Assembly: GCA_019873665.1 (NCBI GenBank)
Contig: JAIOAV010000031.1
Location: 1 to 38,074, forward strand
DNA from: Chloroflexota bacterium
GTDB taxonomy: Bacteria > Chloroflexota > Anaerolineae > JAAYEA01
Direction of reading: 5' to 3'
DNA length: 38,074 nucleotides
The notes beneath the pieces were generated by a model that was given only the letters and a program-made list of their open reading frames with translations, did not search any database and was not told the origin of the DNA. The stretch's first letter is position 1, and every line of letters begins with the position of its first letter. Shown one piece after another: positions 28,100-34,150 of the stretch. Made by a program: the position numbers and the translations under genes.

Positions 28100-28882
28100 T
28101 CAATGATCTTGAATGCCAAGGGAATCTCCCACCTGCGCATCCAAAAGCCGGGCGGCGCTCCCCTCACGAACGGCAATCTCCAACCGGCGAGAGCTGCCGA
28201 TCACCGCCACAAGCTCCCCACGGGGAACTGCTGCATACGACGGGTGCAGACCCACGATTCGCTTCCCTTTATAGTATACGACAACCTGCGGCATGGAGGC
28301 CAAATCCCGATCCCGCACATCGGTGATCAGGTTGCCAAAGTGGTCAATGTAGCGCACATGACCGAGGAGCGTACCGTCAACCTCTCTCTCTGGCTGGAAT
28401 ACGGGAAGGTGCAGCAGATCGCTCACCGGGTCTCCCAGCTCGCGCAGCGGCACACCACGCGCCAGGTGCGCCCCCACCGGCGCAAAGATGTCGCGCCCAT
28501 GGAAGGTGTGGCTCACGATCGGCAGCCAGAAGGCAGGGCGATTCAGATGCACCGCTGCCACGACTTGCTCCTGCGCCAGCGCCTCACTCAATACGCCATT
28601 GTCCGGCGCGACGTAGAACGCACGGTCGGTCTGCACCGCGATGGCGCGCCGTTCGCTGCCCACGCCGGGGTCCACAACGACCACATGGATTGTGCCCGCC
28701 GGGAAAAAGGGCACAGCCGCAGCCAGGACAAAAGCTGCCTCCTGGACACCCTGCGGCGCGACGCCATGGGAGAGATCCACAATCCGCGCCGCCGGGCAGA
28801 TGCTCAGGATGACGCCGTGCATCGTCCCCACAAAGCCATCAGCGAGGCCAAAATCAGTGGTCAGCGTGATGATGGGAGGCAT
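28100..28882 (-). CDS. SAM hydroxide adenosyltransferase (DUF62, fluorinase/chlorinase superfamily)
   Basis: A 260-residue enzyme of the DUF62 family, which hydrolyses S-adenosylmethionine to adenosine and methionine using an activated water. N-terminal landmarks are LTTDFGLADGFVG (Asp10 and Asp15 near the SAM ribose), VVDPGVGSERR and APDNGVLS. The C-terminal beta-barrel is marked by HVRYIDHFGNLITDV and LVAVIGSSRRLEIAV. A halogenase-type extra loop (as in FlA) is not obvious, so the hydrolase is the safer call. It starts one base after the stop of a SAM-dependent methyltransferase, so a coupled SAM-related module is likely. The ATG at 28882 puts the homology at residue 1; the longer frame upstream is antisense to the methyltransferase. 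Confidence 0.88.
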   Translation of the reverse strand: MPPIITLTTDFGLADGFVGTMHGVILSICPAARIVDLSHGVAPQGVQEAAFVLAAAVPFFPAGTIHVVVVDPGVGSERRAIAVQTDRAFYVAPDNGVLSEALAQEQVVAAVHLNRPAFWLPIVSHTFHGRDIFAPVGAHLARGVPLRELGDPVSDLLHLPVFQPEREVDGTLLGHVRYIDHFGNLITDVRDRDLASMPQVVVYYKGKRIVGLHPSYAAVPRGELVAVIGSSRRLEIAVREGSAARLLDAQVGDSLGIQDH

Positions 28883-28883
28883 A

Positions 28884-29645
28884 TCAGCCCATCTCCCCCG
28901 GTCGCAGCTTTTCCAGCACCAGCAGGTGCGACAGGCCAAAGAGGCGCAGCGGCGTGTTTTCCAGAAAGTAGGTGAGGCGACGCAACAACCCCGCACCGCC
29001 GGGGAAGCGGGCCGCGATCTTGTCATAGCCGGGATAGATCTGCGTGTGCACGACGGTCCGCACCGGCAGCCTCTCATAGAGCGCGTGGAGGCCGCCCCGC
29101 GTGTAGGTGCGGACATGCGGGCAACAGCGCTGCCGCCAAACGTTGGGGAGATAGTTGACCAGCGGGATGTTCCCCTCGTGATACCGCCCGCCCCAATAGA
29201 CGCCGTGCGTCTCAAAGGGATATAGGCGATTCGGGGCAAAGATAACGACTCTGCCGCCGGGCCGCAGCACGCGGCATGCCTCACTGATGCTCAGCCGGTC
29301 ATCCTGGACGTGCTCGATGATCTCGTGCATCAGCACCACATCGAACGAGTCGTTCGGGAAGGGCAGATGCTCCGCCGCTGAAACGCAGACATGAGGCAAC
29401 GATTGATGCGCCTGGCGGATCTTGTCCTCGTCCACATCCACACCATAGACGCGGCGACTCGACGCGGCCATCTTGCGGACGTACGCGCCGATGCCGCACC
29501 CCACATCGAGCACCATCTTGTCCGCCAACGGCGCATAGCGGTTGATCATATCCAGGCGACGATCCTGGCCAAAGCGCCAGACATAGCTGGGACGTCCAAG
29601 TGTGATTGCTTTGCTATCGTTTTCAGACAAAGGTAGCCCCCTCAT
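28884..29645 (-). CDS. Class I SAM-dependent methyltransferase
   Basis: A 253-residue Rossmann-fold methyltransferase. Motif I is LDVGCGIG (residues 46-53), motif II is the acidic GVDVDEDKI, the post-motif AAEHLPFPNDSFDVVL follows, and motif III is LRPGGRVVIFAPN. The C-terminal third (about 140-240), with YFLENTPLRLF, is not conserved and probably gives specificity. It matches UbiE/Methyltransf_11-type enzymes. A downstream SAM hydroxide adenosyltransferase starts one base later. The acceptor cannot be predicted. It is divergent from the thioredoxin reductase gene, sharing the 151-base region at 29646-29796. Confidence 0.85.
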   Translation of the reverse strand: MRGLPLSENDSKAITLGRPSYVWRFGQDRRLDMINRYAPLADKMVLDVGCGIGAYVRKMAASSRRVYGVDVDEDKIRQAHQSLPHVCVSAAEHLPFPNDSFDVVLMHEIIEHVQDDRLSISEACRVLRPGGRVVIFAPNRLYPFETHGVYWGGRYHEGNIPLVNYLPNVWRQRCCPHVRTYTRGGLHALYERLPVRTVVHTQIYPGYDKIAARFPGGAGLLRRLTYFLENTPLRLFGLSHLLVLEKLRPGEMG

Positions 29646-29732
29646 GCCCGAAGATGCGAGCAGCTATATCATAACTGGACTCGCCACAGAGATCAAGTGT
29701 CCGCCAGCGCCCCGGCGGGAAGGAACACCTAT

Positions 29733-29760
29733 TTGGCAGATTGGGGAAAAGGCATACAAT
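29733..29760 (+). promoter_or_regulatory. Promoter of the thioredoxin reductase operon
   Basis: TTGGCA (29733-29738, 5 of 6) and TACAAT (29755-29760, 5 of 6) are 16 bases apart, 37 bases before the ATG. The same transcript should carry both DUF1858 genes up to the terminator at 31349-31382. Confidence 0.75.
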
Positions 29761-29796
29761 AATGAGAATACGTCAGGGTACAAGAGAGGATCAGAA

Positions 29797-30741
29797 ATGT
29801 ACGACGTCATTATCATCGGTTCTGGCCCCGCGGGATATGCGGCGGGGATCTATGCCGGGCGCTCCATGCTCTCCACGTTGCTGATCACCGGCAGCACGCT
29901 TGGCGGCTGGGCGGCGCTGACCGCCGAGATCGAAAACTACCCCGGCTTTCCGGAGGGGATCCAGGGACCGGAGTTGATGGACAGGATGCAAAAGCAGGCG
30001 GAAAAGTTTGGCGTCAAGATCGAGATGGATGAGGTAACCAGCGTTGACTTTTCCAGCCAGCCTTTCAAGGTCGAGACCTATAGCGACACCCATGAGGCAC
30101 GGACGGTCATCGTCGCCACCGGCGTCTCACCGCGCAGACTGGGGGTGCCAGGGGAGGAAGAGCTAGCCGGGCGAGGCGTTTCGCGCTGCGCCACGTGCGA
30201 CGGCTTTTTCTTCACCGGCAAGCGCGTCGCCGTGATCGGCGGCGGCGATTCGGCAGTCGAGGAGGGCATCTACCTCACGCGCTACGCCACACACGTGGAC
30301 ATCATCCATCGGCGCAATCGCCTGCGCGCGCAAAAGGTGGCGCAGGAGCGCGCGTTCAAGAACGAAAAGATCTCGTTCATCTGGGACACCATTGTGACCG
30401 AGATCATAGGCAAAGACAGCGTGACCGGGCTAAAATTGCGTAATGTGAGGACAGGTGCCGAATCGGTCCTGGAGTGCGACGGCGTGTTCATCTTTATCGG
30501 CAACACCCCGAATACAGAGCTATTCGTGGGCAAGCTCGCCCTGGACGAGTATGGGTACATCATCACCGACAGCAACACTCACACCAGCGTGCCAGGCGTC
30601 TTCGCCGCAGGAGATGTGCAGGAGCTCAACTTGAAGCAGATCGTTACCGCCGTCAGTGCCGGCGCGCGGGCGGCGATGGAAGCGGAAAAGCATATCGCTG
30701 AACTAGAGGACCGCGCCTATCCGGAGCGGCAGCTGGGCTGA
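29797..30741 (+). CDS. trxB: Thioredoxin-disulfide reductase
   Basis: FAD-dependent reductase that moves electrons from NADPH to a disulfide partner. From the ATG at 29797 (RBS AGAGAGGA) it is 314 residues, the standard low-molecular-weight size. The FAD motif is GSGPAGYAAGIYAG (8-21), the redox pair is Cys131/Cys134 in CATCDG, the NADPH motif is GGGDSAVEEG (148-157), with HRRNRLRAQK as the phosphate-binding arginines, and the last FAD motif is GVFAAGDVQE. A longer in-frame ATG at 29602 is not supported by homology. No thioredoxin gene follows. Instead two tiny DUF1858 proteins come next, the second with a TGA in its CxxC, so they are candidate redox partners. Confidence 0.93.
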   Translation: MYDVIIIGSGPAGYAAGIYAGRSMLSTLLITGSTLGGWAALTAEIENYPGFPEGIQGPELMDRMQKQAEKFGVKIEMDEVTSVDFSSQPFKVETYSDTHEARTVIVATGVSPRRLGVPGEEELAGRGVSRCATCDGFFFTGKRVAVIGGGDSAVEEGIYLTRYATHVDIIHRRNRLRAQKVAQERAFKNEKISFIWDTIVTEIIGKDSVTGLKLRNVRTGAESVLECDGVFIFIGNTPNTELFVGKLALDEYGYIITDSNTHTSVPGVFAAGDVQELNLKQIVTAVSAGARAAMEAEKHIAELEDRAYPERQLG

Positions 30742-30790: not shown

Positions 30791-31003
30791 ATGACGATTA
30801 ACAAACAGATGTCTATCGGCGAGGTCGTGCAAAAGTATCCGCAGACGATCCCCGTCTTTCTGCAGCACGGTCTGATGTGCGTAGGCTGCGCTGCGGCGCG
30901 CTTTGAGAATATCGAGCAGGGCGCACGCGCCCACGGTATAGACGTGGACGCGCTCATCACAGCACTCAACAAGGTAGTGCCGCAGCAGTCGCCCGTAGCA
31001 TAA
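30791..31003 (+). CDS. DUF1858 small redox protein (CxxC form)
   Basis: A 70-residue DUF1858-family protein, related to the TIGR03980 'hybrid cluster protein-associated redox disulfide domain'. The family core starts MSIGEVVQKYPQTIPVF and reaches the motif CVGC (Cys30 and Cys33), followed by a helix with ARFENIEQGARAHGID and the end ALNKVVP. With two cysteines in CxxC, it probably acts as a small thiol-disulfide carrier. A good Shine-Dalgarno (AAAGGAG) precedes the ATG, 49 bases after the trxB stop, so it is in the same operon. Its downstream paralogue shares about 50 of 66 aligned residues and has TGA in place of the Cys33 codon (TGC at 30887-30889). Confidence 0.87.
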   Translation: MTINKQMSIGEVVQKYPQTIPVFLQHGLMCVGCAAARFENIEQGARAHGIDVDALITALNKVVPQQSPVA

Positions 31004-31098: not shown

Positions 31099-31314
31099 GT
31101 GGCGATTACTAAAGACATGTCTATCGGTCAGATCGTGCAGCAGCACCCACAGACGATTCCGGTATTCCTCAAACATGGCTTGATGTGCATCGGTTGAGCG
31201 GCCTCTCGATACGAGAATATCGAGCAGGGTGCTCGAGCTCATGGCATTAATGTGGAAGCATTGATCGAGGCGCTAAACAAGGTCGTGCCGCAGCCAGCCA
31301 AGAAGGAAAGCTAA
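31099..31314 (+). CDS. Candidate selenoprotein: DUF1858 redox protein with CxxU motif
   Basis: A tandem paralogue of the gene at 30791, read here through one in-frame TGA at 31195-31197 (codon 33). The frame runs from GTG at 31099 (GGAGGT nine bases upstream) to TAA at 31312-31314, 71 residues. The TGA replaces exactly the second cysteine of CxxC, so the motif is Cys30-Ile-Gly-Sec33. After the TGA the protein remains colinear with the paralogue (AA, R, ENIEQGARAHGI, ALI, ALNKVVPQ identical); changes are mostly synonymous or conservative (F/Y, D/N, D/E, A/S), which would not persist in untranslated sequence. A hairpin follows the TGA directly. Other genes here use TGA as stop (mtlD, trxB), so the code is standard. 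A Cys-to-stop mutation or a base error are the alternatives. Confidence 0.75.
31195..31233 (+). promoter_or_regulatory. Candidate bacterial SECIS stem-loop
   Basis: Seven bases after the in-frame TGA (31195-31197) a perfect 7-bp upper stem forms between CTCGATA (31205-31211) and TATCGAG (31218-31224). The 6-base loop CGAGAA has G as its second base, as in bacterial SECIS models. Below, with C31225 bulged, 31202-31204 pair with 31226-31228; after one G-G mismatch 31198-31200 pair with 31230-31232, and A31197 with T31233. The total of about 37 bases rooted in the UGA is the expected size. The cysteine paralogue does not keep the left arm: its Arg-Phe codons are CGC-TTT, where this gene has CGA-TAC. 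Confidence 0.72.
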
Positions 31315-31348: not shown

Positions 31349-31382
31349 AAATGGCCTCGCTTCAGCCGAAGCGAGGCCATTT
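31349..31382. terminator. Intrinsic terminator of the trxB-DUF1858 operon
   Basis: A perfect 15-bp stem (31349-31363 with 31368-31382) around the 4-base loop AGCC, followed by T. It begins 35 bases after the selenoprotein candidate's stop and also lies 65 bases after the end of the convergent DUF5666 gene, so it may serve both strands. Confidence 0.9.
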
Positions 31383-31446: not shown

Positions 31447-32853
31447 CTATGCGGTCAATATCCCGGCGGCATCAGGGTCAGGCAGAGCCACGATCGAGGC
31501 CTGCATGGTGCCATCCTCATTCCAGAAGCCGATGACGAGCACGATGGCGTCCGGATGCGCCGCGAGATAATCCGCCAGGTCCTCCACAGTTGGGGATCGC
31601 ACGTCCGGCACGCAGAAGCGAGTATCCTCGTTAGTGTGCACGGTCTTGCTGCCGTCATCCGTGAGGAGCACCAGCACGCCAGTGGTCGTGTCAAGCGACT
31701 CCACCGTGCCCGTGATGCGCTCTGGACGTGGCCGGGGTCGGGTGATGGCGACGATCTTGGCCAAGACCTGGTCCACGCCGGTTGGGTCCACCACGCCGTT
31801 GACTACGGCGCGATCATTCACCCGCACATCTGCCAAAGTGGCACTCGTCATACCCTGGATATGGAACTTGGTATCACCATTGACCGCGATCGTCTTGGTC
31901 TCGCCAGAGCGGAGCTCCAGGCTAAAGGTCTGGGCATCCAGATCAATGGCGGTAACTATGCCGGTGAGCACCACGGGGCGAGGCTGTGGGCGGTGCACGG
32001 TTACGACCAGCGCGAGGTAATGCGCGCCGATGTAGGTGGCCGTGATGTCAGGTGGCAGCACTTTGGCCACAACCTTATCCCCGACCTGCAGATCAGCAAA
32101 AGTGGGATCTTGGACACCGGGGATGACGAACTGCGTGTCGTCGTTTACGTCAATGATGAAAGTCCGGACACCGCTCAGCAACTTGAACCAGGTGTCGCCA
32201 ATCTTGGTTACTTTGCCGGCCAATTCGACAGGACGTGCTTGCGGGCGATGGATCACCACAAGCTGAGCTACCAGCACGGGATCGGTCGCCGCGTTATCCG
32301 CTGCTGGCACGGCTTTCACATTCGCCCGATCCCCCACCCTGACGTCAGCCAGCGTCGGCAGCCGCACACCAGGGATGATGAACTCGGTATCATCGTTCAC
32401 CTGCACAGAGATCGTGCCGCGCCGTGTCTCGAGCGTGAGCGAGGCGTCGCCAACCTCTTTCACCACGCCGACGATCTCCACCGGACGCACGCCCGGCTTG
32501 ACTGTAACCATGCGGGCGTCAAAATCGGTGCGAGACATCGCCTGCCACCTGCCCGTCGCCACGATCTGGTCGCCGCGAACGATATCCGCGATGCTCGGGT
32601 CAGGGTCGTTGGGGATGACAAAGCGCGTATCGGCGGTGGTATGGATGATCACTTCGGCATAGGGATTCTGCGCCTGGATTTTGATCTTCCCTTCGTCCGG
32701 CAGCACCTCCAGAACGACCCCATTGACCTGTTGCAGAATAGCCTGATCGGACACTTCTTCCTGGCGTGCCGGCCCTTCCGCTAACGCGACGCCGGCAGTA
32801 CCCAACAGCAGTGATAGGACAAGCAGCACGAGAAACAGATTTCGTTTGAGCAT
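31447..32853 (-). CDS. Secreted protein with five DUF5666 repeats
   Basis: A 468-residue exported protein built from about five copies of an 80-residue beta-rich unit. The start at 32853 follows GGAGG eight bases upstream and gives a clear signal peptide: LKRN, a Leu/Val-rich core, and an ALA-E cleavage site near residue 25. Each repeat contains a G-x-V strand, a D-D-T-(E/Q/R)F segment, a P-x-(L/F)AD-x-xVGD turn and ends in a HRPQARP-like Arg/Pro hinge; the last copy is the most divergent. The pattern is that of DUF5666. Its function is unknown; an OB-like extracellular ligand-binding role is possible. It is convergent with the trxB operon. The gene is divergent from the Mrp-type ATPase. Confidence 0.82.
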   Translation of the reverse strand: MLKRNLFLVLLVLSLLLGTAGVALAEGPARQEEVSDQAILQQVNGVVLEVLPDEGKIKIQAQNPYAEVIIHTTADTRFVIPNDPDPSIADIVRGDQIVATGRWQAMSRTDFDARMVTVKPGVRPVEIVGVVKEVGDASLTLETRRGTISVQVNDDTEFIIPGVRLPTLADVRVGDRANVKAVPAADNAATDPVLVAQLVVIHRPQARPVELAGKVTKIGDTWFKLLSGVRTFIIDVNDDTQFVIPGVQDPTFADLQVGDKVVAKVLPPDITATYIGAHYLALVVTVHRPQPRPVVLTGIVTAIDLDAQTFSLELRSGETKTIAVNGDTKFHIQGMTSATLADVRVNDRAVVNGVVDPTGVDQVLAKIVAITRPRPRPERITGTVESLDTTTGVLVLLTDDGSKTVHTNEDTRFCVPDVRSPTVEDLADYLAAHPDAIVLVIGFWNEDGTMQASIVALPDPDAAGILTA

Positions 32854-32970
32854 GTTGTTGGCCTCCAATTCTCCACTGGTCTGGCGATCCGATGTTACGG
32901 CTGCGCGATAAGGTCGGGGCTACAGAGCGCAGCAAGAGACATGATTCCTATCCCCTATATTGGCATCTGT

Positions 32971-33103: not shown

Positions 33104-34150
33104 ATGGCGAGTGTCGAACAGGCACGCGCGGCGTTGACAAAGGTGATAGACCCAGAGCTGGGGCGCAATATCGTGGAGTTGGGGATGGTGCGTGATCTGC
33201 AAGTGCAGGGCGAGACAGTCCGTTTCACGCTGGCGCTCACGACGATGGCCTGCCCATTGCAGAACCGGATGATCGCGGACGCCAAAGAGGCGCTGTTGGC
33301 GCTGCCGGGCGTGACACAGGTAGATGTGCAGATAGCCGAGATGACGCCCGAGCAGAAGCGGCAGATCATGGGCTCCAGACAGGAAGAGAGCTATACCGCT
33401 ACCAGTTTCAACCACGTGCGCAACGTGGTGGCGGTGATGAGCGGCAAAGGCGGTGTCGGCAAGTCGCTCGTGTCGGCCTTGCTCGCTGTGGCCCTCAAAC
33501 GAGCTGGCAAACGCGTTGGCATCTTGGATGCAGATATCACGGGCCCCAGCATTCCCAAGATGTTCTTTGCCGAGACGCCGCGCCTTTCCAATTCCCCGCT
33601 CGGCATCCTGCCGGCACAAAGCGACGGTGGTATCAAAGTGATGTCTATCAACCTGCTGTTGCCGCACGAGGATGACGCGGTGATCTGGCGTGGGCCGCTC
33701 ATCTCTGGCGCGATCAAGCAGTTCTGGGGTGACGTTTTCTGGGGCGATCTGGATGTATTGGTGGTGGACCTGCCGCCGGGCACGTCAGACGCCTCGCTGA
33801 CGGTGATGCAGTCCCTGCCGATCACCGGCATTGTCATGGTAACCACGCCGCAGGAGCTGGCAGGTATGGTGGTGCGCAAGGCATCGCAGATGGCTGCGCA
33901 GTTGTCCATCCCGATCTTGGGCCTGGTGGAGAACATGAGCTATGTGCTCTGCCCCCACTGCGGCACTCGGATTGACGCCTTCGGGCCCAGCCATGCAGCG
34001 GAGGTCGCCGAGCGGATGGGAGTGACTCTGCTGGGGCAACTGCCCCTGCGCGCCGAGATTGCTGCCCTGGCGGATGCCGGGCGCATTGAGGAAGCAGCCT
34101 TGGAGGATTTCGCGCCGATCGTCGAGCAGGTTACGAACAGCCTATCGTGA
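33104..34150 (+). CDS. Mrp/ApbC/NBP35-type iron-sulfur cluster carrier ATPase
   Basis: A 348-residue P-loop ATPase that binds and transfers Fe-S clusters. The N-terminal MIP18/DUF59 domain (residues about 3-85) has VIDPELGRNIVELGMV and a TTMACPL cysteine. The deviant Walker A SGKGGVGKS is at 113-121, the DADITGPSIPKM motif follows, Walker B is VVDLPPGTSD, and the C-terminal cluster-binding cysteines are in LCPHCG. The order DUF59-ATPase-CPHC is that of bacterial Mrp proteins. AAAGGGG precedes the ATG. A NifU-like scaffold gene starts 58 bases later, so the two likely form an Fe-S assembly and delivery unit. Confidence 0.92.
   Translation: MASVEQARAALTKVIDPELGRNIVELGMVRDLQVQGETVRFTLALTTMACPLQNRMIADAKEALLALPGVTQVDVQIAEMTPEQKRQIMGSRQEESYTATSFNHVRNVVAVMSGKGGVGKSLVSALLAVALKRAGKRVGILDADITGPSIPKMFFAETPRLSNSPLGILPAQSDGGIKVMSINLLLPHEDDAVIWRGPLISGAIKQFWGDVFWGDLDVLVVDLPPGTSDASLTVMQSLPITGIVMVTTPQELAGMVVRKASQMAAQLSIPILGLVENMSYVLCPHCGTRIDAFGPSHAAEVAERMGVTLLGQLPLRAEIAALADAGRIEEAALEDFAPIVEQVTNSLS

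What the first reader, a model, noticed from the sequence alone, without database searches (positions are those of the whole stretch)
31099..31314. Tiny DUF1858 redox protein with TGA in place of the CxxC cysteine: a probable new selenoprotein
Seen: GTG-initiated 71-codon frame, one in-frame TGA at codon 33, exactly aligned with Cys33 of the upstream paralogue (30791-31003). About 50 of 66 aligned residues are identical. Beyond the TGA the two copies differ mostly at synonymous sites and by conservative changes, so this part looks translated. Known: bacterial selenoproteins often have CxxU where homologues have CxxC, and Cys paralogues are common. Inference: the TGA codes selenocysteine. I do not recall a well-described selenoprotein family based on DUF1858, so it may be new; this must be searched.
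Basis: partly seen in the sequence, partly recalled or inferred. Interest (0 to 1): 0.93.

Follow-up and report, generated by a model that had tools for sequence, protein, structure and literature searches.

The report
Selenium twin of a redox protein
A tiny gene sits directly behind a nearly identical gene but carries a TGA codon where its neighbour has an active-site cysteine, followed by a hairpin that distant bacteria share in the same gene, so it is likely a selenium-containing redox protein; the protein family was already listed as one that can carry selenium, but this copy probably switched from cysteine on its own.

Summary
Window 31099-31314 is a DUF1858/TIGR03980 frame with one internal stop, TGA, opposite Cys33 of the tandem paralogue at 30791-31003. 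Selenocysteine is by far the best reading. A contig scan found 45 DUF1858 genes with TGA at this cysteine, 44 of them in Bacillota. A 7-bp hairpin with a GGG loop (31220-31236) fits the published bSECIS model; among rows with the same protein motif all seven pairs form in 27 of 32 TGA rows and 0 of 24 Cys rows. A model built without the window scores the TGA copy 58.9 bits and its Cys twin 25.5. The genome has selA, selB and tRNA-Sec; selD was not found in this 91.5%-complete bin, though the same-family relative has it. The claim of a new family fails: two reviews already list DUF1858 with CxxU. New here: a member in a lineage that otherwise showed only Cys copies (none in 399 other phylum genomes or 99 other relatives), behind thioredoxin reductase, and evidence that three silent changes in EQGAR codons completed the hairpin locally. 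That origin is favoured, not proven (AU p = 0.064 for one alternative). Selenium incorporation, redox activity and the reductase link are inferred.

The parts
31099..31314 (+). DUF1858/TIGR03980 gene with one in-frame TGA; predicted selenoprotein with CxxU (Cys30, Sec33)
31195..31197 (+). TGA codon 33, aligned with the second Cys of the CxGC motif of homologues; predicted Sec codon
31220..31236 (+). bSECIS hairpin UCGAGCA-GGG-UGCUCGA, 7 bp; 22 nt from the UGA to the stem, 29 nt to the GGG loop
31082..31088 (+). AAGGAGG, probable ribosome-binding site of the TGA gene, 10 nt before GTG
   Evidence: sequence read directly
30791..31003 (+). tandem Cys paralogue (CxGC); 4 of the 7 hairpin pairs
29602..30741 (+). 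thioredoxin reductase (TIGR01292, CATC active site), same strand, just upstream; the HMM match begins at residue 67, so the true start is probably Met66 (29797); its own stop codon is TGA
31349..31382 (.). 15-bp perfect inverted repeat, loop 4, probable end of the transcription unit
   Evidence: the consensus terminator scan did not list it

Best explanation
The 71-codon frame at 31099-31314 is a DUF1858 gene with a TGA codon at the second cysteine of its CxxC motif and a 7-bp hairpin (31220-31236) inside the coding sequence, and that TGA is likely read as selenocysteine. Predicted steps: SelB carrying Sec-tRNA-Sec binds the hairpin, UGA 33 is decoded as Sec, and a small all-helical CxxU protein is made in place of a 32-residue stub. 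Its Cys30-Sec33 pair would form a selenenylsulfide and shuttle electrons; the neighbouring thioredoxin reductase is the likely reductant of both this protein and its Cys twin (inferred from gene order only). The gene likely arose by duplication of a local Cys copy: EQGAR codons already give 4 of the 7 pairs, and three silent differences from the Cys twin (GGC/GGT, GCA/GCT, CGC/CGA) complete the hairpin. Shown here: the TGA, its position, the homologues, the hairpin and its covariation, selA, selB and tRNA-Sec, and the gene order. Inferred: decoding, chemistry, electron donor and direction of change.
For: Homologues: a TGA-specific pattern over genome contigs gave 52 loci, of which 45 are DUF1858 genes with U at the same codon and 7 are false. 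Hairpin: in rows with EQG/GQA, all 7 pairs in 27 of 32 Sec against 0 of 24 Cys rows (Fisher 2.8e-11, not corrected for relatedness). Sec alignment: 96.4% of cells paired, 22 double-change cells and covariation score 0.294, each reached by 0 of 500 shuffles, and at most 41.5% paired when slid; Cys alignment: 54.8%, reached by 57 of 500. RNAalifold on the Sec rows finds exactly this helix, on the Cys rows not. Model built on 31 rows without the window: window TGA copy 58.9 bits, Cys twin 25.5, best Cys gene in 28 sources 35.8. Hairpin alone -8.4 kcal/mol, Cys equivalent -1.2. Residue +13 is R, L or Q in 32 of 32 Sec rows against 10 of 24 Cys rows. Machinery in this genome: tRNA-Sec 70.4 bits, selB 355.5 bits, selA 582.7 bits, all over cut-off. 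Codons after the TGA are conserved. Fold: pLDDT 90.9, best match 2k5e. TrxR on the same strand upstream of a Cys DUF1858 in 13 of 24 Cys rows from this phylum, window included. Origin: win_Sec, win_Cys and a same-family Cys gene form a starred clade, 99/92.
Against: selD not found in G000: best hit 91.2 bits, below the 125-bit cut-off; its translation looks to me, by recall, like a HypE/AIR-synthase relative. The minimum-energy fold of the isolated 66 nt (and 54 nt) from the TGA on is a different, longer hairpin starting at the UGA, so the small hairpin rests on comparison, not on that fold. Two of the five covariation measures do not exceed shuffles in the Sec rows: pairs with a change on both sides (370 of 500 as high) and further pair types (285 of 500). 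One Cys gene, the Caloramator twin in L086, has 6 of the 7 pairs. One genome only: no second TGA copy at the active site in 399 other phylum genomes or 99 other relatives. selA is over cut-off in 87 of 100 genomes of that set and in 3 of 5 false-hit genomes, so the machinery permits but does not single out this gene. Joining win_Sec with a clostridial Sec/Cys group is not rejected at 0.05 (p = 0.064, group named after seeing the tree), and a tree with win_Cys sister to L154 is 8.4 log units better than the printed one. No TrxR was found at the 45 TGA loci from other genomes, many of which hold little upstream DNA. No reads, proteomics or selenium data.
Confidence: 0.93

Rival explanations
1. 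Assembly or sequencing error: codon 33 is really TGC or TGT and the gene is an ordinary second Cys copy.
For: TGC to TGA is one base; no reads could be checked; no examined relative has the TGA.
Against: An error at one base would not also complete the SECIS hairpin 22 nt downstream: three silent differences from the Cys twin add exactly the three missing pairs, and the leave-out model separates the twins by 33 bits.
Confidence: 0.03
2. Decaying duplicate: the TGA is a premature stop and the rest is a pseudogene.
For: An intact Cys copy lies next door; the TGA copy carries more amino-acid changes than its twin relative to the same-family Cys gene after codon 33 (9 against 3).
Against: Strong purifying selection after the TGA, no further stop, and a SECIS hairpin shared with TGA homologues.
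Confidence: 0.03
3. The gene is a selenoprotein, but it came from a Bacillota donor together with its SECIS instead of arising from the local Cys copy. (A rival on origin only; it shares the recoding claim of the best explanation.)
For: The hairpin is identical in letters to those of Syntrophomonas and others; tandem Cys-Sec pairs also occur in Caloramator and Fonticella; AU p = 0.064 for a clostridial grouping.
Against: Starred 99/92 clade with its own twin and the same-family Cys gene; 77% identity to the twin, its highest in the set.
Confidence: 0.25

Closest known systems
DUF1858 domain-containing protein, CxxU (WP_012065717.1) of the prokaryotic selenoprotein lists (PMC9312934, PMC13188914)
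   Same: Same Pfam family (PF08984) and same CxxU motif (table rows seen as passages).
   Different: The rows give motif, accession and references only. Here: a lineage otherwise seen with Cys copies, tandem with its Cys twin behind thioredoxin reductase, and a described SECIS.
TIGR03980, hybrid cluster protein-associated redox disulfide domain
   Same: 92.3 bits against a cut-off of 44.95.
   Different: Second Cys replaced by the TGA codon; I did not look for a hybrid cluster protein gene.
PDB 2k5e and 2k53 (small proteins of unknown function)
   Same: Sequence match E 1.1e-13 and 2.1e-12; TM-score 0.76-0.78 to the model.
   Different: The matched 2k5e stretch has CIGC where the window has CIGU.
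ScdA/YtfE N-terminal domain (PF04405)
   Same: Sequence match of 22.9 bits, below the 32.5-bit cut-off, and weak fold matches to YtfE chains, E 1.3 to 2.7.
   Different: Stand-alone 71 residues; the following di-iron domain of those proteins (recalled) is absent.

Membership tests
Bacterial selenoprotein | In-frame UGA aligned with a conserved Cys of homologues | tested here: met
   46 Sec rows (window plus 45) and 55 Cys rows share the motif position.
Bacterial selenoprotein | bSECIS: 4-16 bp upper stem, G in the first two loop positions, loop 16-37 nt from UGA, MFE at most -7.5 kcal/mol (model as given in PMC13188914, passage) | tested here: met
   7 bp, loop GGG, 29 nt, -8.4 kcal/mol for the 17 nt alone. 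Checked by hand; bSECISearch itself was not available, and the 66-nt fold prefers another hairpin.
Bacterial selenoprotein | Host has selA, selB and selC | tested here: met
   all over cut-off.
Bacterial selenoprotein | Host has selD | tested here: inconclusive
   No hit over cut-off in G000, 91.5% complete; 84 of 100 genomes of the relatives set are over cut-off, G790 of the same family included.
Bacterial selenoprotein | Selenium present in the protein | not testable with these tools
   Needs labelling or mass spectrometry.
PF08984 / TIGR03980 | Score over curated cut-off | tested here: met
   74.9 against 32.2 bits and 92.3 against 44.95 bits, TGA read as Cys.
PF08984 / TIGR03980 | Redox pair at the CxxC position | tested here: inconclusive
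   First Cys encoded; the second position is TGA, a redox residue only if read as Sec.
Thioredoxin reductase-linked thiol carrier | Reduction by thioredoxin reductase | not testable with these tools
   Only gene order: 13 of 24 Cys rows of this phylum, window included.

The most novel reading that the evidence does not exclude
DUF1858 carries a latent selenocysteine signal in its own protein code: codons of the helix motif EQGA plus R, L or Q fold into most of a bSECIS, so a Cys gene becomes a selenoprotein gene by one base at the Cys codon and two to four silent changes. Different bacterial lineages, this one included, have done so independently and reached the same hairpin letters, and the signal in turn holds residue +13 to R, L or Q.
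Probability: 0.5. Interest if true: 0.68.

Novelty: new member of a known kind. Interest (0 to 1): 0.5.

Why it matters
How a selenoprotein can arise from a cysteine protein is an open question, because a stop codon and a working SECIS must appear together. Here a Cys gene and its likely Sec sister lie 95 bp apart, behind a thioredoxin reductase, and differ in the SECIS stretch by three silent bases. If the local origin holds, the intermediate states can be built and measured. It also gives a covariation-supported SECIS for a family of which I saw only list entries, and a practical flag (TGA plus EQGA[RLQ] hairpin) for genes that annotation would cut at the TGA.

Tried and rejected
New family claim: rejected after the paper searches (8 papers hold 'DUF1858', two of them selenoprotein reviews). 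A second TGA in the phylum, G153:C123:51417: rejected, the TGA lies before the motif. Rfam: nothing SECIS-like. Census of stops in DUF1858 of the class of G432 (301 of 341 genomes match): useless for this, because the list of matches was cut off at the best scores, all without stops. Neighbours of the 45 TGA genes: recurrent neighbours look like general housekeeping genes and suggest no partner (names by recall, not searched). Naming the phylum: no call names it. The record labelled Chloroflexota (L093) is a false hit. Terminator scan does not list the repeat. Left out of the hairpin counts: 14 of 46 Sec rows and 31 of 55 Cys rows without EQG/GQA; the 14 Sec rows form 5 or fewer of these 7 pairs and probably use other hairpins, not tested. 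Of 159 domain hits, those without G..C.G[CU] were dropped and duplicates merged, leaving 46 Sec and 55 Cys rows. Among the 45, L087 has only 25 codons before and 20 after its TGA. One search was given 50 of the 52 loci (L068 and L095, both false hits, left out). One search did not include the Cys twins of L086, L096 and L102. One search scored only 15 first-look candidates in each genome, so misses are possible.

Full report
What is there. The frame 31099-31314 starts with GTG, ends with TAA and has a single internal stop, TGA, at codon 33. It follows a Cys paralogue (30791-31003) and a thioredoxin reductase (29602-30741, TIGR01292, 406.7 bits) on the same strand. Both small proteins belong to PF08984 and TIGR03980. 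TGA also serves as an ordinary stop here, because the reductase itself ends with TGA, so a plain TGA-as-sense code is unlikely.

Is the part after the TGA translated? Between the twins, codons 34-65 differ by about 19 synonymous and 7 nonsynonymous changes (dN 0.10, dS saturated), codons 3-32 by 16 and 9 (dN 0.14). There is no further stop, a good ribosome-binding site precedes the GTG, and a 15-bp inverted repeat follows the TAA.

Relatives with the same TGA. A pattern demanding TGA at the second Cys codon, scanned over genome contigs (described as one genome for each of 84,980 species), returned 52 loci. Read in frame, 45 are DUF1858 genes with CxGU and 7 are chance (L061, L068, L078, L093, L094, L095, L107). 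By record title 44 are Bacillota and one is Sumerlaeota (L083). selA is over its cut-off in 43 of these 45 genomes (missing in G400 and G419) and in 3 of 5 false-hit genomes. In the window's phylum TIGR03980 matches 108 of 400 genomes, and 54 of 100 in the relatives set; both sets include G000, and only G000 has the TGA at the active site. The same-family genome G790 has three copies, none with a stop. A SECIS model search in 396 genomes of the class gave 58.9 bits for G000, then 35.8 or less (shallow first look).

The SECIS. With the first base of TGA as column 1, columns 26-32 pair with 36-42 around a GGG loop. The window has all seven pairs, its Cys twin four. In rows with the same protein motif (32 of 46 Sec, 24 of 55 Cys) all seven form in 27 of 32 Sec and 0 of 24 Cys rows; the best Cys row, the Caloramator twin in L086, has six. 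In 31 of 32 Sec rows pair 27-41 is C-G, U-A, A-U or U-G: the wobble base of an Ile/Val/Leu codon follows the middle base of the Arg/Gln/Leu codon five residues later. In the Sec rows no shuffle of 500 reached the percentage paired, the double-change cells or the covariation score, but the numbers of pairs with double changes and of pair types were reached by 370 and 285. In the Cys rows percentage paired and covariation score were reached by 57 and 54 of 500. Shuffles do not allow for relatedness; sliding the partner, which does, gives at most 41.5% paired against 96.4%. RNAalifold recovers this helix from the Sec rows alone. A covariance model built without the window scores the window TGA copy 58.9 bits and its twin 25.5; the best Cys gene in 28 further sources reaches 35.8. 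The numbers fit the bSECIS model described in PMC13188914 (passages). Against: the minimum-energy fold of the 66 nt from the TGA on is another, longer hairpin.

Machinery. tRNA-Sec on contig C6 (70.4 bits; anticodon tca), selB on C53 (355.5 bits), selA on C44 (582.7 bits). The five best SelA matches among 13 compared are from its own family and class, so contamination from a distant phylum is unlikely for that gene. selD was not found in G000, but 84 of 100 genomes in the relatives set have it over cut-off, G790 included. The bin is 91.5% complete.

Origin. On a tree of 101 proteins over 60 columns, with the Cys/Sec residue masked, the window TGA gene, its twin and a same-family Cys gene form a starred clade (99/92). 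The Sec/Cys label needs 10 changes, at least 6 by starred branches; the count cannot tell gain from loss. One clade for all Sec rows is rejected (AU p 4e-18). A grouping of the window gene with the clostridial EQG group has p 0.064, and a tree in which the window Cys twin pairs with G790's Cys gene, leaving the TGA gene outside, fits better than the printed one. So the duplication may predate the split from G790, and a local origin is favoured without being proved. Few columns and sampling by pattern limit this. In the SECIS stretch the twins differ by exactly three silent bases and pairing rises from four to seven; three is also the minimum for that Cys sequence, and 10 of 24 Cys rows could reach seven pairs by two to four silent changes, 14 by none. 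Residue +13 is R, L or Q in 32 of 32 Sec rows and 10 of 24 Cys rows, as expected if the RNA constrains the protein.

Function. AlphaFold gives a confident five-helix domain (pLDDT 90.9) that matches PDB 2k5e and 2k53; it is not a thioredoxin fold (my reading of the helices). A thioredoxin reductase gene stands just upstream on the same strand in 13 of 24 Cys rows of this phylum (window included), in 3 of 31 other Cys rows and at none of the 45 TGA loci from other genomes. The loci of the 45 hold 2.5-8 kb and the gene often lies near an end, so an upstream reductase could be missed there. I therefore propose that the reductase reduces the DUF1858 protein, but this rests on gene order, chiefly in one phylum. 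Other printed hints on the domain are an NnrR-dependent DUF1858 gene in Bradyrhizobium (PMC6710368, table passage) and an N-terminal DUF1858 in DrpB of nitrate-respiring Thermus (PMC6282519, passage).

Known or new. PMC9312934 and PMC13188914 list a DUF1858 selenoprotein with CxxU (table passages); the first cites for it a 2008 and a 2016 paper (reference list). Of PMC9312934 I saw the outline, abstract, part of the reference list and passages; of PMC13188914 passages; of PMC1794560, PMC5029168, PMC2398784 and PMC4982691 passages. In the held library, searches for DUF1858, TIGR03980, Chloroflexi with selenoproteome, Chloroflexota with selenoprotein and SECIS with convergent evolution listed no paper whose title or shown abstract start describes this gene, its SECIS or a convergent origin. 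I did not open most of the listed papers, among them the deep-Sep predictor (PMC12013277), nor any supplement, and most subscription papers are not held. Cys to Sec conversion as such is described (PMC1794560, passages). The finding is a new member of a known kind, with a good evolutionary case attached.

Noticed in passing
relatives set of G000: selD in this class is itself nearly always interrupted by one in-frame TGA (all but five of the listed over-cut-off rows, three of those five lacking the N-terminal part), as expected of Sec-containing SelD.
   Followed up: no
L086, L096, L102, L067: Tandem Cys and TGA copies of DUF1858, 324-379 bp apart, also occur in two Caloramator genomes, Fonticella and another Clostridiaceae genome (there with the TGA copy first), like the window pair (308 bp).
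   Followed up: partly
L079:4365-4412: This TGA gene lacks the common hairpin (3 of 7 pairs) but could form a longer one, GAGCAAGG-GGC-CCUUGCUC.
   Followed up: no
14 Sec rows outside the EQG/GQA subset (Alkaliphilus, Negativibacillus, Oscillospiraceae and others): They have other codons at the hairpin site, some with GCAUC-GGU-GAUGC-like hairpins; a second SECIS type in the same family is likely.
   Followed up: no
window 28100-29284 (-), 31447-32868 (-), 33104-34150 (+): Neighbours: SAM hydroxide adenosyltransferase, a DUF5666 protein, and an Mrp/ApbC-like iron-sulfur carrier.
   Followed up: no
G000:C30:35118-35288: Third DUF1858 copy of the genome, Cys type, divergent.
   Followed up: no
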